A DNA stretch of 64,000 nt, taken from NCBI RefSeq assembly GCF_000143825.1, contig NZ_CM000961.1, positions 1,447,448 through 1,511,447 of the forward strand, given 5' to 3'. Both the position numbers and the translations under genes were made by a program. Shown in pieces: positions 5,482 to 63,921 of the stretch. How positions within the stretch are numbered: position 1 is the first letter of the stretch; every line of letters starts with the position of its first letter. Source of the stretch: Corynebacterium genitalium ATCC 33030 (GTDB lineage Bacteria > Actinomycetota > Actinomycetes > Mycobacteriales > Mycobacteriaceae). Under the pieces are notes generated by a model, which ran no database searches, was not told where the DNA came from, and worked only from the letters and a program-made list of their open reading frames with translations.

Positions 5482-6568
5482 CCGCCTTCCATTCCTGCCA
5501 CACGTCTTCGACTTCTGCGGCGAGCGCGAGCACCTCGCTGTCGCTGGCAGTAATACCGCCGATGTGGATGGGCCCGACAGCAATCGCCGGCCCGCCAGTG
5601 AGGTTGAAAAGAGAGCACCACGGCGACCACGCAGTCTGCGCGGCGAAGCTCTCCGCTGGGCTCATCGCGGAAAAGTGACCCACCGGCGGGGGATCTGTAG
5701 CGACGGTCGGGGTGAGCAGCACATCCACACCCCACTCACGCTGCAATGCCTGCGACAATCCGGCAATATGGCGCTGACCCTCCGCGAGCTGCGCGGCAGT
5801 CACGGCGATACCTTGCTCCTTCAACCAGGAAATGTAGGCACTGTCCAGCGGGTCCACCTTCACGAACGCCTGCTGGATACGGCGGGTGAAGTGCGTAAAC
5901 GTCTCTGCGGCCGCCTGATACGGGTGGAGCTTAACGACGTCGCAGCTGCCCCCGAGCACCTCCGCCGCCTGCTCAACGACTGCTATTCGGTCGGGGCTGA
6001 CCACCGATTCAGTGGAGAAGAGGGGAGTGGTGAGGAGGCCGACGCGCAGGCGTCGATAAGCATTGGGCGCGTTGTGCAAGAACTGCTGGTCCGCGACTGT
6101 CGCTGTGATGAAGCCGTCGGTGGACACGGTCTTGCTGGTACCCGCGGGCTTGAAACCGACAACCTCGCATGCGGCGGCCGGAACGCGCAAAGAGCCGCCC
6201 GCGTCGCTGCCGTGCGCCGCGCGGTGCAGGCCCTCGGCGACGACGACAGCAGCCCCGGTGGATGACCCGCCTGGAGTCGCGCCCGGATAGGCAGGTGAAG
6301 TGAGCACAGGAACGTCGGGACGCTCGGCATAGATCGTGGCGCCAAGCTCGGAGGTGGCTGTCTTGCCGTTGATCGTCGCGCCCTCGCGCTGGAGAGCAGC
6401 TAAAAAGGGGCTGGTGGTCCCCGCAACGTATGTGCGCTGCGGGTTTCCGCCGGTGGTGGGCATGCCTGCGACATCGGACAGATCTTTAGCAGGGATGACC
6501 CAGCCGCTCAAGCGGCCCGTAGTTACGGGCTGCGGATCCGGGGCAAGATACGCGAAGGCGGGGTGCAT
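5468..6568 (-). CDS. Amidase-signature hydrolase
   Basis: This is an amidase-signature family hydrolase of amide bonds with a Ser-cisSer-Lys triad. The catalytic residues are Lys28 (IPAKDLSDVAG), the cis-Ser in GGSSTG (101-102) and nucleophile Ser125 (HGSDAGGSLRVPA). At 366 residues it is shorter than the usual 450-500, mainly in the C-terminal half, so the substrate cannot be inferred. It is not the GatA subunit, because it is short and no gatB or gatC lies nearby. A possible -10 box (TAGACT, reverse strand, 6579-6584) sits 10 nt before the ATG. It contains one copy of the CGTCGATAAGC word (6051-6061). Confidence 0.85.
   Translation of the reverse strand: MHPAFAYLAPDPQPVTTGRLSGWVIPAKDLSDVAGMPTTGGNPQRTYVAGTTSPFLAALQREGATINGKTATSELGATIYAERPDVPVLTSPAYPGATPGGSSTGAAVVVAEGLHRAAHGSDAGGSLRVPAAACEVVGFKPAGTSKTVSTDGFITATVADQQFLHNAPNAYRRLRVGLLTTPLFSTESVVSPDRIAVVEQAAEVLGGSCDVVKLHPYQAAAETFTHFTRRIQQAFVKVDPLDSAYISWLKEQGIAVTAAQLAEGQRHIAGLSQALQREWGVDVLLTPTVATDPPPVGHFSAMSPAESFAAQTAWSPWCSLFNLTGGPAIAVGPIHIGGITASDSEVLALAAEVEDVWQEWKAARGV
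6051..6061 (+). repeat. CGTCGATAAGC word, copy 1
   Basis: Inside the amidase gene. On the coding strand it is read as Ala-Tyr-Arg-Arg. Confidence 0.8.
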
Positions 6569-6647
6569 AGTGTTCTACAGTCTATGACGGTAGCTGGCAC
6601 TGCTAAGTTGGTAGAGAACACAATCAGGATCAGTGAAGGATGAACCC

Positions 6648-7205
6648 ATGATCGATGACGTATTGCTCGACGCTGAAGAGCGCATGACCAACTCCGTGGA
6701 GCACACCCGCGGCGAGCTGGTGACCATCCGCACGGGCCGCGCGAACCCGGCGATGTTCAACAGCGTCATGGCGGAGTTCTACGGCGCACCCACGCCGATC
6801 AACCAGATGGCCACCATCTCCGTGCCGGAGCCGCGCATGCTGCTGATCAAGCCGTACGACCCGTCCACCATGGGTGAGATTGAAAACGCCATCCGTAACT
6901 CTGACCTGGGTGTCAACCCGACGGACGACGGCCAGGTCATCCGTGTGACCATCCCGCAGCTGACGGAGGAGCGTCGCCGTGACCTGGTCAAGCAGGCTAA
7001 GGGCAAGGGCGAAGACGGCAAGATTGCAATCCGCAACGTCCGCCGCTCCGGCATGGATGCGCTGAAGAAGATCCAGAAGGACGGCGACGCCGGCGAGGAC
7101 GAAGTCTCCGCTGCGGAGAAAGAGCTGGACAAGACCACTGCCAAGTACGTCGACATGATCGACGACCTGGTGAACAAGAAGGAAGCAGAACTGCTCGAGG
7201 TATAA
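6648..7205 (+). CDS. frr: Ribosome recycling factor
   Basis: RRF splits post-termination ribosomes together with EF-G. The 185-residue length and the N-terminus [13 protein letters not shown] are typical. Other family segments are the [10 protein letters not shown] region and the basic RRDLVKQAK stretch. The ATG at 6648 has AAGGA seven bases upstream and is preferred over an in-frame ATG five codons earlier, which overlaps that ribosome site. cdsA follows after four bases, so the two genes probably form one transcript. Confidence 0.97.
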
Positions 7206-7209
7206 GCCT

Positions 7210-8103
7210 GTGACAGACAGCGAGGCACCAGCAGCCGGCCATTCACGCCGGGTGCATTTGCCGAAGCCGAAGAACTCCGCAGGCCGTAACCTCCCCGCCG
7301 CCATCGCGACGGGTCTCGCGCTGATCGCCCTCGTGCTGGTGGCCACATGGGTGGGTCCCGTGATGTGGTACCCCGTGGTGTGTCTCGCCATGGCGTTGGC
7401 CATGTGGGAGGTGCTCACGCGCCTGCGCGAGCACGGTTTCGGGGTGTACAGGTTCACCATCATCGTGCTCGGTTTGAGCATGGTCGTGTCCACCTGGCCG
7501 TTCGGGTACCCGGGCCTGCTGGCCACGTTCACGGTCAGTGCGCTGGCCATCATGTTCTCCCGTCTGTTCTTCCACGGGAGGAACACTCCGCCGCAGAACT
7601 ACGTCCGCGATACTGCGGTGAGCATTTTCGTGCTCGTGTGGATCGGGCTGTTTGGCTCCTTCGCCGCGATGATTTCCCGGCTGGAGTCAGGGGATGTCAC
7701 CGGTAGCCATTTCATCCTCACATTCATCGCGTGTGTGGTGGCGAACGACGTGGGTGGCTACGTCGCTGGAGTTCTGTTCGGCTCCCATCCCATGGCACCG
7801 GCCGTCAGCCCCAAGAAGTCCTGGGAAGGCTTTGCGGGTTCAGTGCTGTTTGGCGCGGTGACAGGCGTGTTGACTGGCATGTTCATGCTGGCGAGCCCGT
7901 GGTGGACGGGACTCATCTTTGGCGTGGGGACCGTGCTCTGCGCCACCATGGGCGACCTGGTGGAAAGCCAGTTCAAGCGTGAGCTGGGCATCAAGGACAT
8001 GTCGGGGCTTTTGCCCGGCCATGGCGGCATGATGGACCGCGTCGATGGCATTCTGCCGGCCGCCGCTGCGACGTGGCTGCTGATGAGTGTCGTGGTGATC
8101 TAA
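7210..8103 (+). CDS. cdsA: Phosphatidate cytidylyltransferase
   Basis: This integral membrane enzyme makes CDP-diacylglycerol from phosphatidate and CTP, the precursor that PgsA (also in this window) and related enzymes use. The polypeptide has about seven or eight hydrophobic segments and the CDP-diglyceride synthase signature near the C-terminus ([12 protein letters not shown], then [18 protein letters not shown]). The length is 297 aa and the start is GTG. It lies four bases after frr, as in many Actinobacteria. Confidence 0.95.
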
Positions 8104-8161
8104 CGGCCGTCTCACCCGTGCCTCTGGTTGCTATTCGCTAACTGCGCTATCCCGTGCCACA

Positions 8162-9295
8162 ATGGGGCACGTCATGAGTGATTTTCCAAAGATCCAGTTG
8201 CTGTCGCCCAAGCGCGGCATGCCGCCGAAGCACTTCGCCGACCTGAGCGAGGAAGAGCGGATTGAAGCGCTCGGTGAACTCGGCCTGCCTAAGTTCCGCG
8301 CCGATCAGATCGCGCGCCACTACTACGGCCGCTTCGAGGCGGACCCGTCCACGATGACGGATTTGCCCGCCGCGCAGCGCGAGCTGGTCAAGGATTCCCT
8401 GTTCCCGCGTCTGCTCACCCCGGTGCGCAAGGTGGAGACCGACAACGGCGACACCACCAAGACGCTGTGGCGCTTGCACGACGGCATTCTTCTGGAGTCC
8501 GTCTTGATGCGCTATCCGGGCCGCGCCACCCTGTGCATCTCGTCGCAGGCAGGGTGCGGCATGGCGTGCCCGTTCTGCGCGACCGGCCAGGGCGGCCTCG
8601 ACCGCAATCTGTCCACTGCGGAGATCGTCGACCAGGTCCGTGAAGCCGCCGCGATGATGGAGGCCGAAGGCTCCCGCCTGACCAACGTCGTGTTCATGGG
8701 CATGGGCGAGCCGCTGGCCAACTACAACCGCGTCGTGTCCGCGGTGCGCCAGATTGTCAGCCCGGCCCCGCACGGTTTCGGCATCTCCCAGCGCAACGTG
8801 ACGGTGTCCACGGTCGGTCTCGCCCCGGCGATCCGCAAGCTTGCCGACGAAGGCCTTTCCGTCACTCTCGCTGTGTCCCTCCACACGCCCGACGATGAAC
8901 TGCGCGACGAACTCGTCCCGATGAACAACCGCTTCACCGTTCAGGACGTGCTGGATGCCGCCCGCTACTACGCGGACCAGACCGGGCGCCGTGTGTCGAT
9001 TGAGTACGCGCTCATCCGCGACATCAACGACCATGACTTCCGCGCGGACATGCTGGGCCAGAAGCTTCACGACGCGCTCGGCCCCCTCGTCCACGTCAAC
9101 CTCATCCCGCTCAACCCGACCCCAGGGTCGAAGTGGGATGCCTCCCCGCGTGAGCGCCAGGACGAGTTTGTTCGCCGCGTCATTGCCCAAGGCGTCACCT
9201 GCACGGTCCGCGATACCAAGGGTCAAGAGATCGCAGCTGCTTGTGGCCAGCTAGCTGCCGATGAAAAGCAGGCGGGGGAGAAGGCCGGCGCTTAG
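8162..9295 (+). CDS. rlmN: 23S rRNA/tRNA adenine C2-methyltransferase RlmN
   Basis: RlmN is a radical-SAM enzyme that methylates C2 of A2503 in 23S rRNA and A37 in several tRNAs. The 4Fe-4S cysteines are Cys132, Cys136 and Cys139 ([13 protein letters not shown]). Cys361 near the C-terminus (AACGQL) fits the methyl-carrying cysteine. The length is 377 aa from ATG 8162; ATG 8174 (MSDFPK) is an alternative start. A strong terminator follows. Confidence 0.95.
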
Positions 9296-10118: not shown

Positions 10119-11285
10119 GTGTGTGAGAATGGTCGGGTGCGAAAGGTACTCATTCTCGGCTCGACAGGATCGATCGGCACCCAGGCGTTGGACGTCATCG
10201 GAGACAATCCGGAGGATTTCGAGGTAGCGGGCATCGCGGCAGCGGGATCGGATCCGCAGGCGATCATTGCTCAAGCCCGGCAGTTCGGCCTGTCGGCCGA
10301 ACAAGTAGCCGTGTCCAAGCCTGAGGCTGCGCAGGTCATCTCGGTGGCGCTGGGCGGCGAGGTTCTCACCTCCGCCGAGGAGCTGGTGACCAATACGAGC
10401 GCGGACGTCGTCCTGAACGCTCTCGTGGGCTCCCTCGGGCTTGCTGCCACGCTGGCGACGCTGGATACTGGGGCGATTCTGGCGCTAGCCAATAAGGAGT
10501 CCCTCGTCGCTGGCGGTGACCTCGTCCTGGAACGCGCGAAGAAAGGCCAGCTCGTGCCCGTCGATTCGGAGCACTCCGCGATGGCCCAGTGCCTCCGGGC
10601 AGGCCGCACGGAGGAAGTGTCCCGCTACGTCCTCACGGCCTCCGGTGGCCCTTTCCGCGGTTGGACGCGCGAGCAGATGTGGGATGTCACCCCGGAGCAG
10701 GCGGCCGCGCACCCGACATGGTCGATGGGGCAGATGAACACGCTCAACTCCGCAACGATGGTGAACAAGGGCTTGGAGCTGATTGAGGCGACGTTGCTGT
10801 TCGGCATCAGCCCCGACATCATCGACGTCACCGTTCACCCGCAGTCCATCGTCCACTCCATGGTCACGTTCTGCGACGGTGCCACCATCGCCCAGGCCTC
10901 CCCGCCGTCGATGAAGATGCCGATCGCCCATGCGCTGGCCTGGCCGGGCCGCGTGCCTAAGGCGCAGCACAGCCTCGACTTCACCCAGGCGATGGACTGG
11001 CGTTTTGAGCCCCTGGACGAAGACACTTTTCCCGCCGTCAAGCTCGCCCGCGAGGTCTCCCGCCTGCGCGGGACGTACCCCGCCGTCTATAACGCTGCCA
11101 ATGAGGAAGCTGCGGCCGCGTTCCTTGCCGGCCGGATCCGCTTCCCCCAGATCGTCGACGTGGTGAGCGAGGTGCTCGACTCCGCGTCCGATTTCGCGGT
11201 TCAGGCGGGGTCGTTCGGGGAGATAGTGGACGTCGAAAAGCAAGCGCGAGTGCACGCGAATGAGCTGGTGGACGCATGCTCCTAG
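10119..11285 (+). CDS. dxr: 1-deoxy-D-xylulose 5-phosphate reductoisomerase
   Basis: Dxr makes 2-C-methyl-D-erythritol 4-phosphate in the MEP isoprenoid pathway using NADPH. The Rossmann motif [11 protein letters not shown] lies at the N-terminus, with metal- and substrate-binding [10 protein letters not shown] and [10 protein letters not shown], and the [20 protein letters not shown] loop. GTG 10119 has TAGAAC seven bases upstream; GTG 10137 would start directly at the conserved core, so the start is uncertain by six codons. The gene overlaps the M50 protease gene by 10 bp, and ispG of the same pathway follows. Confidence 0.95.
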
Positions 11286-13715: not shown

Positions 13716-15569
13716 ATGGAATCCAGGCTGACAGTGCGTGTTGCGGGGATCCTCGCTGTGCTCGCACTCGCCTTCGGGGTGGTGGCCTGCACACCGAAAC
13801 CGAACCCCGCTCAGCCGGTGGCCAACGACTTCCTCGAAGCATTGCAGGAGCTCGATTACGACGCGATGTCGGAGCTTGTCGACGACCCCGACACCGCCAT
13901 CCCCTCTATCCAAGCCACCGTCGGTGGCCTGCAAATGGAGGGTGTCACCGCCACGTTGAACCACGTGAACCAGCAAGAGAACATCGCCACGGCGAACTAC
14001 ACCTTCGACTGGCATCTTCCGCGCGGCCGCAACGTGTCCTATGACGCGTCGATGACCTTGACCCAGTCCAACGATGATTGGACGATCCGCTGGCAGCCCT
14101 CGATCCTCCACCCGCGGCTCGGCGCCAGCCACCACTTGGAGCTGCGTACCGTACCCGCTGATCAAGCAAATGTGGTCTCCTCCGATGGTGTGGCGCTGCT
14201 CAGCCCCGGCATTGCCTACCGTCTGCTTGTGGACACCGAGGCAGTGCGCAACCACGCCGAGGTCGCCTCCGCCGTCTCCTCTGCGCTGGAGAAGGCCCAT
14301 GCCGAGGACCCGTCTGTGCCCACCCGGGACGCAGGTGAGCTGCAGAGTTCATTCGTGTCCGTCACCGGTGTCTACTCCGTGGCGATGATTCCGGCTGGCA
14401 CGCACAAGATCGTCCAAGACGCCGTCAAGGGCACCCCGGGTGTGCGGCTCAACGAAGAAGCCTCAATGGTCAACAACGACCCATCTTTTGCTCCCGACAT
14501 CATGGCCCGCGTTGGCGAAGTCGTCCGCGATGACCTTGAAGGCGACTCCGGGTGGAAGGTCTCCGTTGTCAACGACAACGGTAATGAGATGGAGGATGTG
14601 GAGTTTCATGAGGCGCGGCCGTCGCCGTCGATAAGCATCAGCTTGTCGCATGAAGTGCAGACGGCGGCGGAGAAAGCGCTCGAGCCGATCAACGGGCAGA
14701 AGGCGATGATCGTGGCCATTCGCCCGTCGACCGGGGAAATTCTCGCTGTGGCGCAGACGAAAGCCGCCGATGAAGACGGCAACCTGGCCATGATGGGGCA
14801 GTACCCGCCGGGCTCGACGTTCAAGATCATCACCTCCTTCGCCGGAATGGAGAAGCAGGGGCTCACGCCGGAGTCGGTCGTGCCGTGTCCGGGATCGATG
14901 GATATCTACGGGCGCGTGGTGAACAACTACGCCGGATTCGGCCTGGGCAACGTGCCGATGGACACTGCGTTTGCGCGTTCGTGCAACACCACTTTCGCCG
15001 ATATTTCCACGAAGCTCGAGTCGGGGGAGCTGCAGAGCGTGGGTAAGCAGTTCGGTCTGGGGATCGACTACGAGATTCCGGGGTTGGAATCCATGACTGG
15101 TTCCATCCCCGTCGGCGAGGAACCGCTCGACCGCACGGAAGCCGGGTACGGCCAGGGCCTCGACCTTGCCAGCCCCTTTGGAATGGCGCTTGTTTCCGCC
15201 ACCGCAGCGCGCGGGGAGACGCCGATGCCGTACCTGATCAAGGGGGAGGAGACCAAGGCCAGCGAGACGGCCGCGAAGCCGAACCCTCAGGCTATCGACG
15301 GTCTGCGCTCCATGATGCAGTCCGTGACCGGGCCGGGTGGTACCGCAGGCGGCATGGGTGCTGGCGGTGACATCCGCGGAAAGACCGGTGAGGCCGAGAT
15401 CAATGAAGGATCCCACTCCTGGTTCACCGGATACCGTGACGACGACATCGCCTTTGCCACCCTCATCGTTCTCGGGGGCGGGTCCGAGGCGGCGGTCGCA
15501 GTTACCGACGCGATGTTCCGCAACATTGATGAGCCGGGGCCGGAGGCGGGAGCGCCGAAGCCCGAGTAA
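13716..15569 (+). CDS. Penicillin-binding lipoprotein (transpeptidase)
   Basis: This is a D,D-transpeptidase that cross-links peptidoglycan at the outer face of the membrane. From ATG 13716 the 617-residue protein opens with a lipoprotein signal ending in the lipobox VVAC, then an NTF2-like MecA_N domain, a dimer domain and the transpeptidase domain. The active site is complete: Ser367-x-x-Lys370 (GSTFK), Ser422-Cys-Asn424 and Lys556-Thr-Gly. An earlier in-frame ATG at 13671 lies inside the ispG terminator and is rejected. The position after ispG matches Rv2864c of M. tuberculosis. It contains one CGTCGATAAGC word, using a rare ATA codon. Confidence 0.94.
   Translation: MESRLTVRVAGILAVLALAFGVVACTPKPNPAQPVANDFLEALQELDYDAMSELVDDPDTAIPSIQATVGGLQMEGVTATLNHVNQQENIATANYTFDWHLPRGRNVSYDASMTLTQSNDDWTIRWQPSILHPRLGASHHLELRTVPADQANVVSSDGVALLSPGIAYRLLVDTEAVRNHAEVASAVSSALEKAHAEDPSVPTRDAGELQSSFVSVTGVYSVAMIPAGTHKIVQDAVKGTPGVRLNEEASMVNNDPSFAPDIMARVGEVVRDDLEGDSGWKVSVVNDNGNEMEDVEFHEARPSPSISISLSHEVQTAAEKALEPINGQKAMIVAIRPSTGEILAVAQTKAADEDGNLAMMGQYPPGSTFKIITSFAGMEKQGLTPESVVPCPGSMDIYGRVVNNYAGFGLGNVPMDTAFARSCNTTFADISTKLESGELQSVGKQFGLGIDYEIPGLESMTGSIPVGEEPLDRTEAGYGQGLDLASPFGMALVSATAARGETPMPYLIKGEETKASETAAKPNPQAIDGLRSMMQSVTGPGGTAGGMGAGGDIRGKTGEAEINEGSHSWFTGYRDDDIAFATLIVLGGGSEAAVAVTDAMFRNIDEPGPEAGAPKPE
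14626..14636 (+). repeat. CGTCGATAAGC word, copy 2
   Basis: Inside the penicillin-binding protein gene, read as Pro-Ser-Ile-Ser with the rare codon ATA. Confidence 0.8.
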
Positions 15570-19058: not shown

Positions 19059-20456
19059 TTAGACCGGCGGAAACTCGAAATCGAGACCCAGAATCGCGTT
19101 CTCCGTGACCTCCGCGAGGGCAGGGTGAATCCAATACTCGCGACGCGCCACGTCACGCAAATCTAATCCAAAACTTATGACGGTGATCATCTGTTGGATC
19201 AGAGTCGCGGCTTGTGGGCCCATGTAGTGAGCACCAAGGAGTTTGGCGGTCTTCTTGTCGGCAATGAGCTTGACGGCGCTGGTGGAATCCTCCAGGGCCC
19301 AGCCATAAGCGACGTCGCCGTAGGACTGGATCTTGGTGGTCACCTCGTACCCCTCGTCGCGCGCTTGCTGCTCGGTGAGACCGACAGATGCGATCTGCGG
19401 GTAGGTGAACACTGCGGACGGAACGTGGTCGTGGGGGAGTTTGACCAGGTCGTCGTTGAGAAGGTTGTGGCGCACTGCGCGCAGTTCCGCGTTGGCAACG
19501 TGCTTGAGCATGTGTGGGGAGGAGACATCGCCAATAGCCCACACGCCCTCGCAGGTCGTGCGGCCATACTCGTCAACTTTGATGCGGTGGTCGTCATGCA
19601 TCTCAATCCCGGTGGCATCCAGGTTGAGACGGTCGCCATTGGCCACGCGTCCGGTGGCAACGAGGAGAGCATCGGAGGTGAGGGTGGAGCCGTCGTCAAG
19701 CGTGAGCGTGACGCCGCTGTCATCGTGCGACGCGGAGGCGACCGTTCGACCCACGTGCGTTTCGTAGCGCGGAGCTGCCAGGGCGTTGAAGCGGTCGTGG
19801 ATGTCTTTGTCCAGGTGACGCATGAACGGAGAGCGGTTCACAATGCGCACGTGCGTGCCCAGCGACTGGAACACGTGGGCGAACTCCATCGCGATGTAGC
19901 CACCGCCGAGGATGGTAAGCGTTTTCGGCTGCTCCGGAAGACGCATGATGTCCTCGTTGGTGTGGAACGGCACACCAGAGTCGAGGATGACCTGTGGAAT
20001 GAACGGACGGGATCCGGCGGCGATGAGGATCGTGTCGCCGGTGATCGTGGCGGGCTCACCGTCGATGGAGGTGGTCAGCGTCTTCGGGCCGATGAACTCG
20101 GCGTGGCCGTTGTAGAGGGTGATGTTCGGGCACTCCTCACCGCGGCGGTACTCCTCGCCGGAACGGGAGATCACGTCGACGCGGTGGCCGAAGACACGGT
20201 CGACGATGGCCGGCCAATCCGCACCCTCGAAGGTGGTGTGGATGCCGAGCCGCTCTGAGTTCGCGGCAGAAGCGGCAGTGTCGGCGGCGACGACGTACAT
20301 CTTCGTCGGAATGCATCCGGCGTTAAGGCAAGTGCCGCCGAACTGCGGGTTCTCCTCAATCAGCGCAATGGATTTGTCGTCGAACTCCGGGCCGGGCAAT
20401 GAGTTGCCGGAGCCGGAACCGATGATGATCACGTCGTAGTGGGTCGGGTTTGTCAC
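19059..20456 (-). CDS. mtr: Mycothione reductase
   Basis: This FAD- and NADPH-dependent disulfide reductase regenerates mycothiol, the main thiol of Actinobacteria. The 465-residue protein has the dinucleotide fold VIIIGSGSGNS, the redox pair Cys43-x4-Cys48 (GGTCLNAGCIPTKM) and the C-terminal YWIHPALAEVTENAIL with the His-Glu base pair. Absence of lipoamide dehydrogenase neighbours and the Corynebacterium gene order favour Mtr. Its GTG start overlaps the stop of the upstream hydrolase gene as GTGA, implying translational coupling. Confidence 0.93.
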   Translation of the reverse strand: MTNPTHYDVIIIGSGSGNSLPGPEFDDKSIALIEENPQFGGTCLNAGCIPTKMYVVAADTAASAANSERLGIHTTFEGADWPAIVDRVFGHRVDVISRSGEEYRRGEECPNITLYNGHAEFIGPKTLTTSIDGEPATITGDTILIAAGSRPFIPQVILDSGVPFHTNEDIMRLPEQPKTLTILGGGYIAMEFAHVFQSLGTHVRIVNRSPFMRHLDKDIHDRFNALAAPRYETHVGRTVASASHDDSGVTLTLDDGSTLTSDALLVATGRVANGDRLNLDATGIEMHDDHRIKVDEYGRTTCEGVWAIGDVSSPHMLKHVANAELRAVRHNLLNDDLVKLPHDHVPSAVFTYPQIASVGLTEQQARDEGYEVTTKIQSYGDVAYGWALEDSTSAVKLIADKKTAKLLGAHYMGPQAATLIQQMITVISFGLDLRDVARREYWIHPALAEVTENAILGLDFEFPPV

Positions 20457-26592: not shown

Positions 26593-27312
26593 TTAGATGA
26601 ACACTGCCACGAAGACGACTACGAATGCAGCCAGCATCAGGAAGGTGCGCTGCCGCACCGGCTTATGAGCCCAGTTCATCTCCACGTTCGCGTTATTGAA
26701 CGGCGAAATCTGCATCACCATCGGGTCGTTCGGCTCCTTGTACACACCCATTGCGCTGCCATAGCCGAAGTGCTTCTTGCGCTCCACTTCGTCCTCATCG
26801 GTAGGCATTTCAGCCAGGACGTTTTGCCATTGCAGCATGCTACGGAAGAGGTTGACCATTGCTGCGCCGATGGCCACGATGAGCACCACAATGCCGACCC
26901 CTTCAGGAACCCGGAAAGCGGGCAGGCTCATCGTGATCTGCAGGAAAGCACTCGAGACGGCCACCGCGAGGGCCATCCACGCCATCGCCCGGTCCTGACT
27001 TGCCAGGAAACGCGCCGTCTTGTCCGCCGCCGTCTGAGAGAACGGGATGTCGGAACTGTCGGGGACAGGCATGCGTCGATAAGCAAAGGGCGCTTTGGGG
27101 CCCGACACCCACAGTGCGAACGTCAACAACGCGGCGAACCACACACCGAACGTCGCCGACTTCACCGATTTCAGTTCCGTGCGGTTGACCGTGCCATCAA
27201 ATCCAGTCTGCATGGGAACCTGGTTGGGAACCTGGTCGAACTGCAGCATGATGAACACGAACGCAGCCAATGAAACCAGCAGAGACGCGATGTAAATGTG
27301 CCGGGTGCGCAT
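26593..27312 (-). CDS. DUF1648-like multi-pass membrane protein
   Basis: The 239-residue protein has about five hydrophobic segments. Its N-terminal helix plus FDQVPNQVPMQTGFDGTVNR resembles the DUF1648 motif found in SdpI-like membrane proteins. The function is unknown. A cytosolic-type loop with charged residues (TDEDEVERKKHFGYG) lies before the last helix. It is upstream of and probably co-transcribed with the SNase-like gene. One CGTCGATAAGC word lies in it at 27074-27084. Confidence 0.7.
   Translation of the reverse strand: MRTRHIYIASLLVSLAAFVFIMLQFDQVPNQVPMQTGFDGTVNRTELKSVKSATFGVWFAALLTFALWVSGPKAPFAYRRMPVPDSSDIPFSQTAADKTARFLASQDRAMAWMALAVAVSSAFLQITMSLPAFRVPEGVGIVVLIVAIGAAMVNLFRSMLQWQNVLAEMPTDEDEVERKKHFGYGSAMGVYKEPNDPMVMQISPFNNANVEMNWAHKPVRQRTFLMLAAFVVVFVAVFI
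27074..27084 (+). repeat. CGTCGATAAGC word, copy 4
   Basis: Inside the DUF1648 gene, read on the coding strand as Ala-Tyr-Arg-Arg. Confidence 0.8.
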
Positions 27313-36922: not shown

Positions 36923-36934
36923 ATTCCCCGGCAG

Positions 36935-44737: not shown

Positions 44738-47017
44738 TTGAGCAAGAACAAGCACACCCCGGACAACGCTGTTGAGGTCAATGTCGACGAGGAGTTCGGG
44801 ATCACCGAATCCGTCGCTGTTCTGGACAACGGTGACTTCGGTGAGCGCACCATCCGTTTTGAGACGGGCCAGCTGGCACGCCAGGCTGGCGGGTCGGTGA
44901 CGACCTACCTCGACGATGACACGATGCTGCTGTCCACTGTGACCGCATCTAATCAGCCGCGCGAGGGTTTTGACTTCTTCCCGCTGACCGTCGACGTGGA
45001 AGAGCGCATGTACGCCGCGGGCAAGATCCCGGGCTCCTTCTTCCGCCGCGAGGGCCGTCCCTCCACCGAGGCTATTCTGGCCTGCCGCCTGATCGACCGC
45101 CCACTGCGCCCGACGTTTGTGAAGGGTCTGCGCAACGAGGTGCAGGTTGTGGTCACGGTCATGAGCTGGAACCCGGAGGAGTACTACGACGTCGTTGCCA
45201 TCAACGGTGCATCCGCCGCAACGCAGCTGTCCGGCCTGCCGGTCTCGGGCGCTGTCGGTGGTGTGCGCATGGCGCTCATCGCCGACGACCAGCACCCGGA
45301 GGGCCAGTGGGTCGCGTTCCCGAACCACGAGCAGCACGAAGCCGCTGTGTTTGAGATGGTCGTTGCCGGCCGCATTGTGGAAAAGAAGAAGGGCCGGAAG
45401 AAGGTCCAGGATGTCGCGATCATGATGGTCGAGGCAGGTGCGGGCGCTAACGCCGTGAAGCTTATCGACGGTGGCGCTCCCGCCCCGACCGAGCGCACCG
45501 TCGCCGAGGGCCTGGAGGCTGCTAAGCCCTTCATCCAGACTCTGTGCGAGGCGCAGAACGCTCTGGCAGACAAGTCCGCGAAGGAAACCCAGGACTTCCC
45601 GCTGTTCCCGCCGTACTCCGACGAGGTCTTCGACGCTGTGGAGAAGAAGGCGTCCAAGAAGCTGTCGAAGCTCTTGACCATCCCGGGCAAGCACGAGCGC
45701 GATGACGCGACCAACGAGTACATGGAAGAGATCGAGGCAGATCTGCTCGAGACTTTCGCTGGCGAGGACGCCAGCAAGGAGATTCGCGCCGCGTACAACG
45801 CGGTGATGAAGCAGATCGTCCGCGACAAGATCCTCTCCGAGGGCTTCCGTATTGACGGCCGCGGTGTCACCGACATCCGCGACCTCGAGGTCGAGGTCGA
45901 GCTCATTCCGCGTGCGCACGGCTCCTCCCTGTTCGAGCGCGGCGAGACCCAGATCCTCGGTGTGACCACCCTGGACATGCTGAAGATGGAGCAGCAGCTG
46001 GACTCCCTCCACCCGGAGACATCCAAGCACTACATCCACCACTACAACTTCCCGCCGTACTCCACCGGTGAGACTGGCCGGGTTGGCTCTCCGAAGCGCC
46101 GCGAGATCGGCCACGGTGCTCTCGCCGAGCGCGCCCTGATTCCGGTCATTCCGTCGAAGGAGGACTTCCCGTACACGATCCGCCAGGTCTCCGAGGCTCT
46201 CGGCTCAAACGGATCGACCTCCATGGGTTCTGTTTGTGCCTCCACGCTGTCGCTGTACAACGCTGGTGTGCCGCTGGCTGCTCCGGTGGCCGGCATCGCC
46301 ATGGGCCTTGTTTCTGGCGAGGTCGACGGTGAGACCAAGTACGTGGCACTGACCGACATCCTCGGTGCTGAGGACGCGTTCGGCGACATGGACTTCAAGG
46401 TCGCTGGTACGTCCGAGTTCATCACTGCTTTGCAGCTGGACACCAAGCTCGACGGTATCCCGTCCGACGTTTTGGCCAGCGCTCTGGATCAGGCGAAGGA
46501 AGCCCGCGAGACCATCCTGGACACCATGGCTGAGGTCATCGAAGGCCCGGATGAGATGAGCGCGCTCGCCCCGAAGATCACCACGGTGCGCGTCCCCGTT
46601 TCCAAGATCGGTGAGGTCATCGGCCCGAAGGGCAAGACCATCAACCAGATCACCGAGGACACCGGCGCTGACGTCTCCATCGAGGATGACGGCACGATCT
46701 ACGTGTCCGCCGCTACCGGTGAGGCTGCTGACGCTGCGATCGAACAGATCAACTCGATTGCCAACCCGCAGCAGCCGAAGGTGGGGGAGCGCTACCTGGG
46801 CACTGTGGTCAAGACGGTCGCGTTCGGCGCGTTCGTCTCGCTCACCCCGGGCCGCGACGGCCTGGTGCACATCTCCAAGCTCGGCGGCGATAAGCGCATT
46901 GAGAACGTCGAGGATGTGGTCAACGTCGGCGACAAGATCGAGGTGGAGATCGCGGACATCGACAACCGCGGCAAGATCTCGCTCGTCCCGGTCTCTGAGG
47001 ACGAAGACGAGAACTAA
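44738..47017 (+). CDS. pnp: Polynucleotide phosphorylase
   Basis: PNPase is a phosphorolytic 3'-5' exoribonuclease (GpsI in mycobacteria). The 759-residue protein has two RNase PH domains, an alpha-helical linker, a KH domain ([18 protein letters not shown]) and an S1 domain ([20 protein letters not shown] in part). The TTG start at 44738 has AAAGGGA upstream and begins the family N-terminal region; upstream in-frame codons fall within the rpsO terminator. It carries one CGTCGATAAGC word in reverse orientation. Confidence 0.97.
45460..45470 (-). repeat. CGTCGATAAGC word, copy 8
   Basis: Inside pnp, read as Lys-Leu-Ile-Asp-Gly. Confidence 0.8.
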
Positions 47018-47780: not shown

Positions 47781-48667
<887 letters not shown>

Positions 48668-48668: not shown

Positions 48669-49420
48669 TGACGCAAAGCAGGAATCTCGATGTCCAACTG
48701 ATCGCCGCAACTTCGTTTGCGGCGCCAGCGGATGTCGCGTGGGAGCAGGATGGGCAGGCCACGGATGCCGAAGCACTCGTGGAGTTCGCGGGCCGGGCGT
48801 GTTACGAGACCTTCGACAAGCCCAACCCGCACACCGCTGCCAACGACGCGTACCTGCGACACATCCTCGAAGTGGGGCACGACGCGTTGCTCGAGCACGC
48901 CACCGCGACGCTGTACATCCGCGGGCTGTCGCGTTCTGCAGGCAACGAGTTGCTGCGCCACCGCCACCTGTCGTTTTCGCAATTGAGCCAGCGCTTTGTG
49001 CCTGCCGCTGAAGCAGATGTGGTCATCCCGGACGCCATCGCGGACGACGCGGATCTCAAACGCATCTTCCTCGCCGCTGTCGATGAATCGCGCTTCGTCT
49101 ACGAGGAGCTTTTGGGCGCGCTGGAGGAGAACACTGAGGACGAGCCGAACGCGCTGCTGCGCAAGAAGAAGGCCCGCCAGGCCGCGCGCGCGATCCTGCC
49201 GAATGCCACTGAGACGCGCTTCGTGGTCACCGGCAACTACCGCGCCTGGCGCGGCTTCATTGCGGCGCGCGCCAGTGAACACGCTGACGTGGAAATCCGC
49301 GCGCTCGCCATCGCGTGCTTAGAGATTCTTAAAAAGCAAGCACCAGCGCTTTTCGACGACTTCCTCATCAGTACGCTTGCCGACGGTTCCGTCATGGCCA
49401 CCAGCCCGTACGCCGGATAG
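48668..49420 (+). CDS. thyX: FAD-dependent thymidylate synthase
   Basis: ThyX makes dTMP from dUMP with methylene-THF, FAD and NADPH. The 250-residue protein carries the RHR-x7-S signature ([16 protein letters not shown]) and [16 protein letters not shown]. It overlaps dapB by one base, and dapA follows, the dapB-thyX-dapA arrangement seen in Corynebacterium and close to that of mycobacteria. Confidence 0.97.
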
Positions 49421-52460: not shown

Positions 52461-52471
52461 GCTTATCGACG
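52461..52471 (-). repeat. CGTCGATAAGC word, copy 10
   Basis: Intergenic, between the rnj stop and its terminator. Confidence 0.8.
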
Positions 52472-53287: not shown

Positions 53288-56200
53288 ATGTCTGTCACCA
53301 GTACCCAGCGCCGCGGCGGCGCGCGCGACACCGGCGGAACTCGCCCGTACCGTGGCCGCTCTACGTCCGATTCCACCGGCTCCACACGTGCAGCCGACAC
53401 CGCCAACGAGCGTGTCGGCTCTGCTGTCGGCGCCGTCGGGCGCGGGCTGGGCAACGCCGCTCGCGGGGCCACCAGCTCATTCCGGGCCGTTGGTGGGGGA
53501 GCCAGCGGTGGGCGCGGCCGTAAGCGCCGCGACGAAAACTTGCTTGACGACGATCAGCCCACCACTGGCCGCGGATCCCGCGCCTTGACCCCTGAAGAGG
53601 CCTACGCCGACGAGACCACCCCGAAGTCGACACGGCGCAAGCGGACGACGCGCGACACTTCTCCCGCAACGGAACCGGCAGCTGATTCCCGTTCTGCTGA
53701 CGCTGATTATGCCGACGCCGCCGTGGGGCTCAACGGCCGACGCGTTGACGCGGTCGGCCTTGTGCTCATCGGCCTAGCGGCGATCCTTGGCGCTTCGGTG
53801 TGGTTGGATATTGCCGGCCCGGTCGGGGCGGCCATTGCGAACGGGACCCACTGGGTCATTGGTGCCGGCGCTCTCGTGCTGCCCGTGATCCTCGTCTGCG
53901 TTGCCATCGCGATCATGCTCCGCCTGGGGTCGAACGCGTCCGAGCGCGCGCACAGCGGTTTGGGTCTGACCATCATCGGCATCTGCATGCTCGGTCTGAT
54001 CCACATCTTCGCCGGAACGCCCGAAACATGGGAAGGCCGACGCGTCGCCGGGGGTGCGATCGGCGCTTTCGTCGGTGGCCCGCTCAGCGCAGGCTTTAGC
54101 CCGTACGTCGCTGTGCCGCTGCTGATTCTCGTCATCGTCTACGCTGCGCTGTTGGCTACGGGTATTACCGTGCGTGAATCCTTCGACTACATCCGCGCAC
54201 TGTTCCGCAGCATCGCTGACAATGCGCGCACGCCCGACCCGGAGGACGACCTCGCCGACGATGACATGTACGGCCATGTCGAAGACGACCTCGATAACAT
54301 CGCCGAGGGTCGCTCACGCCGCCCGCGCGGGTCCAGCGCTCGCGTAGAGCCCACGCTTTTCGACGTCCCCACCGACAGCAACTACGACGACTACGACGAC
54401 TACGACCAGGTCGACCGTGGCGGTGGCGCTAACCGCACCCAAGTGCTGGACCCGCAGGCAGAACCACCGCGGAAGAAGCGTTCGACCCGCAAGAAGGTCG
54501 CTGTCGCACCGACCACCGTGGACGACGACATCGACGGCACTGACATTGACGGTGCCGACACCCACGCAACGGACACCGCTGACGCTGCTGACTCTGCAGA
54601 CCCTGTCGCGCAGTCGCGTGAGCAGATGCGCCAGGCGATCATCGCTCGCTCCGGCATTGACGCATCGGCTGTGCCCGCATCTACTCCGAACTCGGAGAAG
54701 GAGAAGGCGAAGTCCGGCCAGGCCGACAAGGGTGACGCCGCTGACCAACCTCAGGCGCGTGAGCCGGAGACGTGGTCGCAGACGGATTACACGGTGCCGT
54801 CGACAAGCTTGCTCGTGGCTGGCCAAGCGCCGAAGACACGCACTGAGGCCAATGACCGGATGATCGAGGCGATCACCGATGTCTTCGAGGAGTTCAATGT
54901 CGACGCCCGCGTGACCGGGTTCTCGCGCGGACCGACAGTCACGCGTTATGAGGTCGAGCTCGGCCCTGGTGTGAAGGTCTCCAAGATCACGAACTTGCAG
55001 TCCAACCTGGCCTACGCTGTGGCAACCGACAACGTCCGTCTGCTCACCCCGATTCCCGGCAAGTCCGCTGTGGGTATTGAGGTCCCCAACGCCGACCGTG
55101 AGATGGTCCGCCTGCGCGACGTGCTCGAAGCGCCGAATGTGCGTGGCGACCATGACCCGATGCTCATCGGCCTGGGCAAGAACATCGAAGGCGATTTCGT
55201 GTCCGCGTCGGTGCAGAAGATGCCGCACCTGCTGGTGGCGGGTTCGACCGGTTCCGGTAAGTCGGCGTTTGTGAACTCGATGCTGGTGTCACTGCTGACG
55301 CGTGCGACGCCGGAAGAGGTGCGCCTGATCCTCGTTGACCCGAAGATGGTCGAGCTCACCCCGTACGAAGGCATCCCGCACCTGATCACCCCGATCATTA
55401 CGCAGCCGAAGAAGGCCGCGGCCGCCCTGCAGTGGCTGGTTGAAGAGATGGAGCAGCGCTACATGGACATGAAGTCCGCGCGCGTGCGCCACATCAAGGA
55501 CTTCAACAAGAAGGTCCGCTCCGGCGAGCTGCAGGCACCTCCGGGGTCCGAGCGTGAAATGCGTCCGTACCCGCTCATCATCTGCGTTGTCGACGAGCTC
55601 GCGGACCTGATGATGACCGCGCCGAAGGAGATCGAGGATTCGATTGTCCGCATCACCCAGAAGGCCCGCGCGGCGGGCATCCACCTGGTGCTGGCCACGC
55701 AGCGCCCGTCTGTCGACGTGGTCACCGGCCTGATCAAGACGAACGTGCCGTCACGTCTCGCCTTTGCGACGTCCTCTCTCACGGACTCCCGCGTCATCCT
55801 GGATCAGGGCGGCGCCGAGAAGCTCATCGGTATGGGTGACGGCCTGTTCATCCCGCAGGGCGCTGGCAAACCGCAGCGTCTGCAAGGCGCGTTCGTGTCC
55901 GATGAGGAAATCCAGGCCGTTGTGGACGCCGTCAAGGAGCAGGGCGAGCCGCACTACACCGAGGGTGTCACCGAGGAGAAAGCTGCCGAGAAGAAGGACA
56001 TTGACGAGGAGATCGGCAAGGACATGGACGACCTCCTCGAGGCCGTCGAACTCGTGGTCACCTCCCAGCTCGGCTCCACGTCCATGCTGCAGCGCAAGCT
56101 GCGCATCGGCTTTGCCAAGGCCGGCCGCTTGATGGACCTGATGGAAACCCGCGGCGTCGTCGGCCCGTCCGAAGGCTCAAAGGCCCGCGAGGTGCTGGTC

Positions 56201-56398
56201 AAGCCGGAAGAGCTGGACACCATCTTGTGGATGATCAAGGGTGCAGATCCGGCAGACGCGCCCAAGGAAGTGCTTGACGACGCCTCCGATGCCACCGACG
56301 GTGCCGCCGACGACGGCGATGCGACTCCGTCGTCGGATGCCGAAGGCGACACGAAAACTGTCAAGGCCACGTACAACCCATCCGGCGGAGCGTTCTAG
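53288..56398 (+). CDS. ftsK: DNA translocase FtsK
   Basis: FtsK pumps DNA at the division septum and activates XerCD at dif. The 1036-residue protein has a polar N-terminus, four or five transmembrane helices (about residues 145-300), an acidic low-complexity linker, and the RecA-like motor with Walker A LVAGSTGSGKSAFVNSM and Walker B LIICVVDELADLMM. It ends with the gamma winged-helix domain (SMLQRKLRIGFAKAGRLMDLME in part). ATG 53288 is preferred by the leaderless spacing; GTG 53264 and ATG 53279 are in frame upstream. Confidence 0.96.
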   Translation: MSVTSTQRRGGARDTGGTRPYRGRSTSDSTGSTRAADTANERVGSAVGAVGRGLGNAARGATSSFRAVGGGASGGRGRKRRDENLLDDDQPTTGRGSRALTPEEAYADETTPKSTRRKRTTRDTSPATEPAADSRSADADYADAAVGLNGRRVDAVGLVLIGLAAILGASVWLDIAGPVGAAIANGTHWVIGAGALVLPVILVCVAIAIMLRLGSNASERAHSGLGLTIIGICMLGLIHIFAGTPETWEGRRVAGGAIGAFVGGPLSAGFSPYVAVPLLILVIVYAALLATGITVRESFDYIRALFRSIADNARTPDPEDDLADDDMYGHVEDDLDNIAEGRSRRPRGSSARVEPTLFDVPTDSNYDDYDDYDQVDRGGGANRTQVLDPQAEPPRKKRSTRKKVAVAPTTVDDDIDGTDIDGADTHATDTADAADSADPVAQSREQMRQAIIARSGIDASAVPASTPNSEKEKAKSGQADKGDAADQPQAREPETWSQTDYTVPSTSLLVAGQAPKTRTEANDRMIEAITDVFEEFNVDARVTGFSRGPTVTRYEVELGPGVKVSKITNLQSNLAYAVATDNVRLLTPIPGKSAVGIEVPNADREMVRLRDVLEAPNVRGDHDPMLIGLGKNIEGDFVSASVQKMPHLLVAGSTGSGKSAFVNSMLVSLLTRATPEEVRLILVDPKMVELTPYEGIPHLITPIITQPKKAAAALQWLVEEMEQRYMDMKSARVRHIKDFNKKVRSGELQAPPGSEREMRPYPLIICVVDELADLMMTAPKEIEDSIVRITQKARAAGIHLVLATQRPSVDVVTGLIKTNVPSRLAFATSSLTDSRVILDQGGAEKLIGMGDGLFIPQGAGKPQRLQGAFVSDEEIQAVVDAVKEQGEPHYTEGVTEEKAAEKKDIDEEIGKDMDDLLEAVELVVTSQLGSTSMLQRKLRIGFAKAGRLMDLMETRGVVGPSEGSKAREVLVKPEELDTILWMIKGADPADAPKEVLDDASDATDGAADDGDATPSSDAEGDTKTVKATYNPSGGAF

Positions 56399-62658: not shown

Positions 62659-62683
62659 GAGGTGCTGCGCGGGGAACCCTGCG

Positions 62684-63793
62684 TTAGCTCGCTGCGGCGT
62701 ACTGCACGGTGCCGAAGAGCGCGTCCATTGCTCCGTACGGATGCTTCGTGTTCGTCCGCGGGTAGCCCCTCGGTGAGACGTACACCGGGCGGCCCGCGCG
62801 GATCTCGATGCGGCCGCGCTTGCTGATGTGGGGATCATCGTCGTTGACGCGGTTGTGGTACTCGCAGACGATGGCCAAGTTGTCAATGTTGGTGACACCG
62901 CCGTTTTTCCACGGGTCGACGTGGTGGACTTGGCAGAGGTCGGCGGGCATCCGGCAATCCGGGTTCGCGCAGATAGGCTGAGTGATTTTGGCCAGGGTGC
63001 GCTGCTTCTCCGACGCGAAACGCAGGTCCCGGTAATGGTTGAGCGGGCCCTCGGTTGGGTGGAACAGGGCGGCCTCAAGGCCGTAGGCGGGATTCTGGAA
63101 GTACTGTGCCAGGAAGTCCTTGCCAGTGATGGTGGTGCCGTCGGTCAAGCCTAGGAGGACGTCATCACCCTTGCCGGCGTGAATCTGCGCCAGGTCAGGG
63201 GCGGGGACGATGATGGTCGGCCGCGGTGCCGCCTCGGGGACTCCTGCGCCTGAGCGCATCAGCTCTTCGAAGGCGTCGGCCATCTGCGGCGCGGCCGGCA
63301 AATCGCGAGAAATGTTCGAGCGCAGCGTCGCTTCGAGCGCCGCCATGACGTGCTCGCAGGCGGTGATGACTGCCGTGCGCATCCCCTTGACCGATGCGCC
63401 GAATGACACGCCCTTGCGCGGGTTGACTTCTTTCGCCGGAAGAATCGCCTTGGCGTAGCGCGCCAGCCCCGCACACGTTGTTACGGTGCTGGCAGCCGCA
63501 GCGATGAGCTTTGCCCGGAACCCGGCGCGCTCGACGTCGGAGGTGACGTGCTTGATGGAGCGTTCGATCTGGGCGAGCATGTCGACGCACACCCCGCCCG
63601 ACCGGGCGGCGTCGGCGGCGTCGCGCTGCGCCACGGCTAACGACGACGACCGTGCTGGCCCGTAGTAGGCCGCATGCACCAAGGTCAGCTCGGCTACCCG
63701 GGCTGGTGCAAGGCCGGCCGCGAGGAAGGCATCGCGGTCGAAACCCGCGAGGTCGTCCACCCCGATGCTGGTGAGGAAGTCAAGTAAGTTCAC
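62684..63793 (-). CDS. DUF222 / HNH endonuclease-domain protein
   Basis: The 369-residue protein has a helical DUF222 region (about 20-230) and a C-terminal HNH domain with CANPDCRMPADLCQVHHVDP, NGGVTNIDNLAIVCEYHNRV and the paired cysteines that bind zinc. Such proteins occur in many copies in Actinobacteria, often near mobile DNA. The role is unknown. The GTG start has TAGCGT six bases upstream. It is divergent from the DUF3046 gene. Confidence 0.85.
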   Translation of the reverse strand: MNLLDFLTSIGVDDLAGFDRDAFLAAGLAPARVAELTLVHAAYYGPARSSSLAVAQRDAADAARSGGVCVDMLAQIERSIKHVTSDVERAGFRAKLIAAAASTVTTCAGLARYAKAILPAKEVNPRKGVSFGASVKGMRTAVITACEHVMAALEATLRSNISRDLPAAPQMADAFEELMRSGAGVPEAAPRPTIIVPAPDLAQIHAGKGDDVLLGLTDGTTITGKDFLAQYFQNPAYGLEAALFHPTEGPLNHYRDLRFASEKQRTLAKITQPICANPDCRMPADLCQVHHVDPWKNGGVTNIDNLAIVCEYHNRVNDDDPHISKRGRIEIRAGRPVYVSPRGYPRTNTKHPYGAMDALFGTVQYAAAS

Positions 63794-63834
63794 GCCCTCA
63801 CGCTAAGTGGGCCTCACCATGGCTGGCAAGGGAT

Positions 63835-63858
63835 GTTTGCGCACTACAGTGAGCAAAC
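63835..63858. repeat. Inverted repeat in the HNH-DUF3046 gap
   Basis: GTTTGCGCAC (63835-63844) faces GTGAGCAAAC (63849-63858) around TACA, with one mismatch. It could be an operator for either divergent gene. The remainder of the 156-bp gap holds a CGTCGATAAGC word and the DUF3046 promoter. Confidence 0.4.
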
Positions 63859-63910
63859 TCAAAGAACGTGTCCCGTTGCCGGGCAGTCTTATATGGGGTT
63901 GGGCAATGGC

Positions 63911-63921
63911 CGTCGATAAGC
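63911..63921 (+). repeat. CGTCGATAAGC word, copy 11
   Basis: Intergenic, upstream of the DUF3046 gene. Confidence 0.8.

What the first reader, a model, noticed from the sequence alone, without database searches (positions are those of the whole stretch)
6051..63921. An 11-bp word, CGTCGATAAGC, recurs 11 times and looks like a genome-wide DNA signal
Exact copies lie at 6051, 14626, 24941(-), 27074, 36912(-), 41311, 44113, 45460(-), 48614, 52461(-) and 63911, about one per 6 kb. With roughly 60% GC, chance gives far fewer than one copy in 64 kb on both strands. Copies occur in both orientations, in four different coding contexts (Tyr-Arg-Arg, Leu-Ile-Asp, Val-Asp-Lys, Ser-Ile-Ser) and in noncoding DNA or across a stop codon, so protein sequence does not explain them. 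Rare codons (ATA, TAT-CGA) are used to keep it. A variant with A at position 7 (CGTCGAAAAGC) occurs at 121(-), 11231, 32124(-), 36894, 42697(-), 49348(-) and 54355(-), though several of these read Leu-Phe-Asp and may be codon driven. The pattern is like uptake sequences of Neisseria and Haemophilus, or a recombination, segregation or nucleoid-protein site. I know of no such word described for Corynebacterium.
Basis: partly seen in the sequence, partly recalled or inferred. Interest (0 to 1): 0.8.

Follow-up and report, generated by a model that had tools for sequence, protein, structure and literature searches.

The report
Corynebacterium genome-wide DNA uptake-like word
A short DNA word repeated about 1,500 times in this Corynebacterium chromosome, and present in several spelling 'dialects' across much of the genus, looks like a self-recognition tag for DNA uptake, a kind of signal so far reported only from two families of Gram-negative bacteria.

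Summary
All 11 copies are confirmed (0.03 expected); the chromosome holds 527. The true motif is gapped, CGTCG-N2-AAGC: 37 copies in the window, 1,514 in the genome, balanced between strands, against 89 for the reversed control. Protein sequence does not explain it: 483 coding copies against 45 after synonymous shuffling. It is not polar to replication. Of 242 Corynebacterium genomes 167 carry it at 6 or more times control; in 120 genomes of other genera of the order the highest ratio is 1.64. Some 'negative' species use other dialects: CATCG-N2-AAGC, or TGGCGTCG before an A-rich tract. A G-rich upstream tract recurs in the three dialects. Sites are conserved in place. ComEC, ComEA, DprA and Tad genes are present, but also in species without the motif. 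A ComEA residue beside its first DNA-binding hairpin follows raised CATCG counts (26 of 26 against 1 of 32), mostly within one clade. Best reading: a DNA uptake sequence system, the first I know of outside Neisseriaceae and Pasteurellaceae. Uptake is untested.

The parts
121..131 (-). CGTCG-AA-AAGC
1318..1328 (+). CGTCG-CT-AAGC
3695..3705 (-). CGTCG-AC-AAGC
5929..5939 (-). CGTCG-TT-AAGC
6051..6061 (+). exact word CGTCGATAAGC
8839..8849 (-). CGTCG-GC-AAGC
9064..9074 (-). CGTCG-TG-AAGC
11231..11241 (+). CGTCG-AA-AAGC
13874..13884 (-). CGTCG-AC-AAGC
14626..14636 (+). exact word CGTCGATAAGC
19691..19701 (+). CGTCG-TC-AAGC
24128..24138 (+). CGTCG-CC-AAGC
24941..24951 (-). exact word CGTCGATAAGC
25725..25735 (+). 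CGTCG-TC-AAGC
27074..27084 (+). exact word CGTCGATAAGC
28662..28672 (+). CGTCG-AC-AAGC
28803..28813 (+). CGTCG-TG-AAGC
30529..30539 (-). CGTCG-TA-AAGC
31543..31553 (+). CGTCG-GG-AAGC
31702..31712 (+).
32124..32134 (-). CGTCG-AA-AAGC
36894..36904 (+). CGTCG-AA-AAGC, first arm of an inverted pair (hairpin) that starts right after the infB-like frame 34029-36893
36912..36922 (-). exact word, second arm of the inverted pair
40081..40091 (+). CGTCG-CA-AAGC
41311..41321 (+). exact word CGTCGATAAGC
42697..42707 (-). CGTCG-AA-AAGC
44113..44123 (+). exact word CGTCGATAAGC
45460..45470 (-). exact word CGTCGATAAGC
48614..48624 (+). exact word CGTCGATAAGC
49348..49358 (-). CGTCG-AA-AAGC
49375..49385 (-). 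CGTCG-GC-AAGC
52461..52471 (-). exact word CGTCGATAAGC
53542..53552 (-). CGTCG-TC-AAGC
54355..54365 (-). CGTCG-AA-AAGC
54798..54808 (+). CGTCG-AC-AAGC
56272..56282 (-). CGTCG-TC-AAGC
63911..63921 (+). exact word CGTCGATAAGC

Best explanation
CGTCG-N2-AAGC, with a G-rich upstream tract of about 30 bp and a short A-rich downstream end, is a DNA uptake sequence (DUS/USS-like self-recognition tag) of Corynebacterium. Inferred mechanism: free DNA carrying the tag is bound preferentially on or behind the mycolate outer membrane by a sequence-reading receptor of a Tad-pilus/ComEA/ComEC transformation machine, is taken in as single strands, and recombines by DprA/RecA. Preferential uptake and recombination of tagged DNA, plus selection for exchange with kin, keep hundreds to two thousand copies per genome. 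Species differ in dialect because receptor and tag co-evolve. Shown here: over-representation, gap structure, strand balance, DNA-level (not protein-level) maintenance, positional conservation, restriction to the genus among genomes searched, dialects with similar architecture, presence of the machinery. Inferred: uptake itself and the identity of the receptor; ComEA is the best candidate so far.
For: Copies: 1,514 against 89 control, both strands equal. Spacer strictly 2 nt (535 copies against 6-34 for spacers of 0, 1, 3, 4, 5). Coding copies 10.75 times the synonymous shuffle; of 27 one-mismatch forms only 9A>C is clearly enriched (113 against 24.0). Not polar: 260 leading, 275 lagging. Same motif in a 46.5% GC species. 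167 of 242 genus members at ratio 6 or more; highest ratio 1.64 in 120 genomes of other genera. Dialect B CATCG-N2-AAGC: 490-1,337 copies in 14 of 242 genomes. Dialect C TGGCGTCG + A-rich tail; its 9-mer GTGGCGTCG is at 2.5 times control or more in 11 of the 62 genomes given. G-rich 5' flank in A, B and C. Sites kept in place 32 of 69 against 13% for other 11-mers. comEA-comEC, dprA and a Tad locus in the same genome. ComEA: the two of 238 columns that best follow raised dialect B sit beside its two HhH hairpins; forecast written beforehand: Val in 9 of 9 predicted and 0 of 9 predicted-low genomes. Two Corynebacterium phages: 1 copy in 42 kb, 0 in 40 kb.
Against: No uptake or transformation data; my searches of the held library listed no report of natural transformation in Corynebacterium. 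Presence of ComEC, TadA, the DUF4244 pilin, DprA and ComEA does not separate species with and without the motif. The ComEA correlation has few independent changes (parsimony 3-4) and one discordant genome, G107; one TadA column separated equally well in the first screen; other ComEA columns reach 0.88-0.92 balanced accuracy, and for strong-B genomes alone the Val column ranks only fourth. Many one-mismatch forms are at or below expectation, a stricter picture than I recall for Haemophilus. The G-rich flank is hardly seen in low-GC G137. Inverted terminator pairs are few: 18 of 27 pairs within 100 bp are inverted.
Confidence: 0.72

Rival explanations
1. The word is the binding site of a cytoplasmic chromosome-organising, nucleoid or segregation protein specific to Corynebacterium, spread evenly for compaction or occlusion.
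For: Wide spread and strict bipartite 5+4 bp core with fixed 2-bp gap fit a protein binding site; positional conservation; found in one genus only among those searched.
Against: No orientation bias to the replichores; absence in several separate branches and change of dialect among relatives would be odd for an essential chromosome factor; G-rich asymmetric flank; co-variation with ComEA residues.
Confidence: 0.15
2. A recombination hotspot (Chi-like) read by a RecBCD/AddAB/AdnAB-type nuclease.
For: G-rich flanks recall Chi; density of about 1 per 1.6 kb is not impossible for Chi; could also be genus-specific.
Against: Balanced orientation (260 leading against 275 lagging), whereas known Chi words are leading-strand biased (recalled); a 9-base specified core with a 2-base gap is longer than any Chi I recall; a changed core base between related species.
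Confidence: 0.06
3. A self-marking signal for a defence system: a nuclease or modification enzyme spares or recognises DNA by the density of the word.
For: Genome-wide tag, scarce in two Corynebacterium phages, patchy across species.
Against: No candidate gene was found (none was searched for); presence in the deepest genus branch and most others is unlike mobile defence islands; restriction sites are normally avoided, not enriched (recalled).
Confidence: 0.04
4. Codon usage, tripeptide repeats, a dispersed mobile repeat or chance.
For: About two thirds of coding copies read Leu-X-Asp on the gene strand (325 of 483).
Against: Synonymous shuffles keep all proteins yet give only 45-48 of 483 copies; that frame uses the rare Leu codon CTT (2,182 of 23,272 Leu codons); copies in every frame and between genes; no conserved flank beyond composition.
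Confidence: 0.01

Closest known systems
DNA uptake sequence (DUS) of Neisseriaceae with its dialects (PMC3630211, passages seen)
   Same: Short word, highly abundant in the genome; related species use dialects that differ by few bases around a constant core; a genome with two dialects is described there, as G080 here.
   Different: Different phylum and word; core split by a 2-bp spacer; long G-rich 5' flank; pilus genes are of the Tad/Flp kind and no ComP-like receptor is known; uptake not demonstrated; few inverted pairs.
Uptake signal sequence (USS) of Pasteurellaceae
   Same: Core plus flanking tracts of biased composition (recalled); genome-wide; lineage-specific variants (recalled).
   Different: USS flanks are A/T tracts (recalled); here G-rich upstream plus a short A-rich end; one-mismatch forms not in excess.
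KOPS and Chi oligonucleotides
   Same: Over-represented short words across a chromosome.
   Different: Those are strand-polarised relative to replication (recalled); this one is not.
Natural transformation of Micrococcus luteus with TadA and ComEA (PMC6667448, passages seen)
   Same: Actinobacterial transformation with TadA ATPases and ComEA; the window's genome has a Tad locus and comEA-comEC.
   Different: The term 'uptake sequence' does not occur in its main text; different family.

Membership tests
DNA uptake sequence (DUS/USS) | Short non-palindromic word far above expectation across the genome | tested here: met
   1,514 against 89 reversed control; 483 against 45 synonymous shuffle
DNA uptake sequence (DUS/USS) | Both orientations, in genes and between them, no replication polarity | tested here: met
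   743/771; 260/275; 49 of 535 intergenic, with 13% of the sample predicted non-coding
DNA uptake sequence (DUS/USS) | Dialects in related species with a conserved core | tested here: met
   A, B and C dialects
DNA uptake sequence (DUS/USS) | Competence machinery in the same genome | tested here: met
   comEA, comEC, Tad locus, dprA; but also present in species without the motif
DNA uptake sequence (DUS/USS) | Scarce in phage DNA | tested here: inconclusive
   1 copy in 82 kb of two Corynebacterium phages; small sample
DNA uptake sequence (DUS/USS) | Inverted pairs serving as terminators | tested here: inconclusive
   One clear hairpin in the window (z -4.1); 18 of 27 pairs within 100 bp inverted
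DNA uptake sequence (DUS/USS) | DNA with the word is bound, taken up or transforms better | not testable with these tools
   needs an experiment
DNA uptake sequence (DUS/USS) | Receptor whose variation matches the dialect | tested here: inconclusive
   ComEA hairpin residue: 26 of 26 against 1 of 32, few independent changes
KOPS / Chi | Strand polarity relative to origin and terminus | tested here: not met
   260 leading, 275 lagging
Dispersed repeat element (REP/MITE) | Conserved flanking sequence beyond the word | tested here: not met
   only a composition bias in flanks

The most novel reading that the evidence does not exclude
Corynebacterium runs a DNA self-recognition transformation system of independent origin in a mycolate-bilayer Actinobacterium, in which the conserved competence protein ComEA, through its two helix-hairpin-helix hairpins, is itself the sequence-specific reader of a gapped word with a G-rich lead; the genus has split into dialect groups that limit gene exchange.
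Probability: 0.35. Interest if true: 0.95.

Novelty: new variant of a known kind. Interest (0 to 1): 0.9.

Why it matters
Sequence-specific DNA uptake is stated to be known only from Neisseriaceae and Pasteurellaceae (PMC12616744, passage seen). A third, unrelated lineage would show that self-tagging of genomes evolved again, in bacteria that also have an outer membrane. It predicts hidden natural competence in a genus of industrial and medical weight, could help genetic work in C. glutamicum, and offers 242 genomes with several dialects to study how tag and reader evolve together.

Tried and rejected
DnaE2 as a gene found only in motif-negative species: suggested by weak HHH_3 hits, rejected because 33 of 40 motif-positive and 40 of 40 A-negative genomes have two or more DnaE proteins. 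Loss of the Tad locus: TadA, TadB, TadC and Flp were found in all 40 loci; but TadE was below threshold in 9 of 20 A-negative against 1 of 20 A-positive loci, TadG in 7 against 2, SsdA in 4 against 0, mostly in a divergent A-negative clade, which I read as sequence divergence and did not test further. Presence of ComEC (241 of 242), T2SSE (80 of 80, with weaker matches in part of the A-negatives), DUF4244 (79 of 80), DprA (40 of 40) and HHH_3/ComEA (40 of 40): none separates. A first Markov word scan of five A-negatives showed nothing as strong as the motif; the dialects came out with the codon-shuffle control. An iterative matrix for dialect C drifted into codon periodicity and was discarded. 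The 3-nt G periodicity upstream is mostly codon phase, but a real G excess remains after phase control. The 68 'negatives' were first taken as losses; 17 turned out to use dialect B, 4 of these weakly. In one search my pattern printed Val for G029 wrongly (Ala, corrected). A plasmid search with IF-2 told nothing. PMC5217627 (passages seen), a spaced-motif scan that included three Corynebacterium species, lists only CRISPR pairs for them in the passages seen.
Full report
Observation. All 11 exact copies of CGTCGATAAGC are at the stated places (0.03 expected). In the whole 2,349,853-base contig the word occurs 265 times forward and 262 times in reverse, the reversed word never. The window is C1:1447448-1511447.

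What the motif is. I took 864 kb (36.8%) of the chromosome in 40 spaced stretches plus the window. Single-base changes of the 11-mer were rare except at positions 6 and 7, where every base occurs, and A9>C. The motif is CGTCG-NN-AAGC: 535 copies in the sample, against 19, 16, 34, 6 and 28 for spacers of 0, 1, 3, 4 and 5, and 22 for the reversed motif; the spacer is AT in 184, AA 65, AC 62, TC 56, AG 40, the rest fewer. Genome-wide it has 743 + 771 copies against 42 + 47 reversed, about one per 1.6 kb. The window has 37.

Not protein, not chance. With a crude gene prediction (87% coding), 483 coding copies were compared with shuffles of synonymous codons inside each gene: mean 48.2, maximum 56 in 10 shuffles; the exact word 161 against 7.1; a second run of 12 gave 44.9. 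The main frame (325 copies) reads Leu-X-Asp with Leu as CTT, a codon used for 2,182 of 23,272 Leu. Of 27 one-mismatch forms at the nine fixed positions only A9>C stands out (113 against 24.0); all together 571 against 588 expected, several clearly below expectation. Recognition looks strict, and mutated copies do not pile up.

Orientation and spacing. By GC skew the origin is near 630 kb and the terminus near 1.72 Mb; copies are 260 leading, 275 lagging. Spacing is slightly more even than random (coefficient of variation 0.90; 49 gaps under 200 bp against 63 expected).

Extended architecture. After correction for codon phase, G is in excess at nearly all of positions -1 to -25 (z up to 12.5 at -11), C is mostly depleted there, and A is in excess at motif positions 13 and 14; 47 intergenic copies look alike. 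Against one-mismatch controls the G excess fades by about -30 to -40 and after position 16; it is seen in dialects A, B and C, weaker in the pooled G064, G092 and G029, and hardly in low-GC G137.

Across species. Of 242 Corynebacterium genomes searched with the gapped motif, 167 have at least 6 times the reversed control (195 to 1,964 copies, median 1,094), 7 lie between, and 68 are below 2.5. Of 120 genomes of other genera in the order the highest ratio is 1.64; 50 loci not named Corynebacterium hold 17 copies in 942 kb against 48 control. Named carriers among the 30 Corynebacterium loci include C. glaucum, C. senegalense, C. riegelii, C. mucifaciens, C. pilosum, C. lipophiloflavum, C. tuscaniense, C. 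lubricantis and C. meitnerae; C. pygosceleis, C. meridianum and C. dentalis have no dialect-A copy in about 23 kb each, though C. dentalis (L143) has TGGCGTCG 7 times against 0 reversed. In a TadA+helicase tree of 66 taxa, carriers include the deepest Corynebacterium branch and A-negative taxa fall in several separate places, so the signal looks ancestral and repeatedly lost or altered.

Dialects. A codon-shuffle word scan of A-negative genomes gave CATCG-2-AAGC in a pooled group around G006 (18 against 2.8), confirmed in G006 (37 against 5.0) and G063 (40 against 2.0). Genus-wide, CATCG-N2-AAGC reaches 490 to 1,337 copies in 14 of 242 genomes, 159 to 223 in four more A-poor genomes (G084, G088, G190, G214), and is raised to 118-165 in 16 A-rich genomes; elsewhere it is mostly 20-100. 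G080 carries both (352 A; 1,337 B). G010, G015 and G066 instead carry TGGCGTCG followed by an A-rich tract; a separate scan for 7-mers that precede A-rich 10-mers returns TGGCGTC or GGCGTCG first in those three, and nothing in G265 and G030. GTGGCGTCG, part of this dialect, is at least 2.5 times its control in 11 of the 62 genomes given, one of which (G136) also has dialect A and one (G233, 78% GC in the Tad stretch) gave no clear word in the scan. No word of comparable strength was found in G070 and G171 (98 kb each), G030 (98 kb) and G265 (80 kb). Most of the remaining 51 genomes without A or B were not scanned for new words.

Conservation of sites. Comparing the 18-kb TopA-Tad region with seven relatives (72-78% identity), aligned sites were kept intact in 32 of 69 cases, against 13.4% for all other 11-mers at the same nine positions (the relatives share ancestry, so the cases are not independent).

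Machinery. The genome has comEA-comEC (L079), a DprA match that ends 1.4 kb before the window, and next to topA a Tad/Flp-like locus: TadA, two T2SSF proteins, a DUF4244 protein with a pilin-like start and a weak TadE/G-like match. These are found in species with and without the motif, and in C. glutamicum, a named control, so presence alone is no test. Weak hint the other way: the one genome of 242 without a ComEC match (G214, 90% complete) and the one of 80 without a DUF4244 match (G190) are both weak dialect-B genomes.

Receptor search. Nine Tad and Com proteins were screened for columns that separate five dialect-B genomes from up to 17 dialect-A genomes (10 for ComEA, 9 for ComEC); only two columns did so fully, one in TadA and one in ComEA. 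The ComEA residue follows its first HhH hairpin: GVGx-Val-TA in B, Ala or Lys in A, including G073 and G012, dialect-A genomes placed beside G006 in the tree. In 38 genomes all 12 strong-B ones and weak-B G088 had Val, as did five A genomes (G004, G005, G036, G091, G107), four of them with raised B counts. I wrote down a forecast for 20 further genomes: Val in 9 of 9 predicted, none in 9 of 9 predicted-low (8 Ala or Lys, G089 Ser), the two uncertain ones Ala and Ser. Over 58 genomes, Val is in 26 of 26 with B count 124 or more and in 1 of 32 below (G107); ComEA was not fetched for several other B-raised genomes, such as G080, G169, G011, G190. The next best ComEA column, 25 residues on, lies just before the second hairpin (Ser 25 of 26 against 4 of 32). 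Caution: other ComEA columns reach 0.88-0.92 balanced accuracy by shared ancestry, and with strong-B genomes alone the Val column ranks fourth; Val and raised B change only 3-4 times on a weak tree; many held-out genomes are close kin. Solved ComEA structures exist (8dfk, 8dss); that these hairpins contact DNA is recalled knowledge of the HhH motif.

Interpretation. A strict, non-polar, strand-balanced, gapped word kept at DNA level in and between genes, confined to one genus among those searched, absent from several branches, and changing dialect while keeping its architecture matches what is known of uptake sequences better than any other class I know. [quoted passage not shown] PMC3630211 (passages seen) describes eight DUS dialects. 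I found no report of this word or of natural transformation in Corynebacterium (search listings of a held library without preprints; one search listed 20 of 25 papers holding one of the strings, none on Corynebacterium by title). Corynebacterium phages BFK20 (host given as Brevibacterium flavum) and phi673 (host C. glutamicum) hold 1 and 0 copies in 42 and 40 kb; if G117, whose contig length equals the recalled length of C. glutamicum ATCC 13032, is that species, about 15 and 14 would be host-like.

Noticed in passing
36880-36935: An inverted pair of the motif right after the infB-like frame folds into a hairpin (-20.7 kcal/mol, z -4.1), like uptake-sequence terminators.
   Followed up: partly
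own genome sample: CGTCGNNACGC (A9>C) is the only clearly enriched one-mismatch form: 113 against 24.0; also 11 against 0.0 in G137. A tolerated second-rank form.
   Followed up: partly
242 Corynebacterium genomes: Strand counts in motif-rich genomes are closer to equality than random: z has sd 0.79 over 167 genomes.
   Followed up: no
G000, G068, G069: These three of 40 genomes lack the 754-924 aa frame with a strong HHH_3 match (looks like Tex) that the other 37 have.
   Followed up: no
G137, G144, G153, G165, G177, G185, G197: Only one DnaE-type polymerase match, against two or more in the other 73 of 80: apparent loss of DnaE2; all seven are motif-positive.
   Followed up: no
G136 (contig length equals that recalled for C. 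kroppenstedtii): Few A copies (301) yet GTGGCGTCG also enriched (207 against 67) and CGTCGATAA without the final GC: perhaps a mixed or fourth dialect.
   Followed up: partly
G166:C1:543012-543797, G214, G190: Genomes with few copies and a doubtful machine: G166 (102 A copies, ratio 2.3) has a TGA inside its ComEC match, G214 no ComEC match, G190 no DUF4244 match. Places were listed only in part, so other broken copies may exist.
   Followed up: no
window and G000:C1:1445506-1446060: The DprA match ends about 1.4 kb before the window starts; by Pfam the window carries rpsB, infB, nusA, pnp, RNase J, ftsK, a proS-like and an mqo gene.
   Followed up: no
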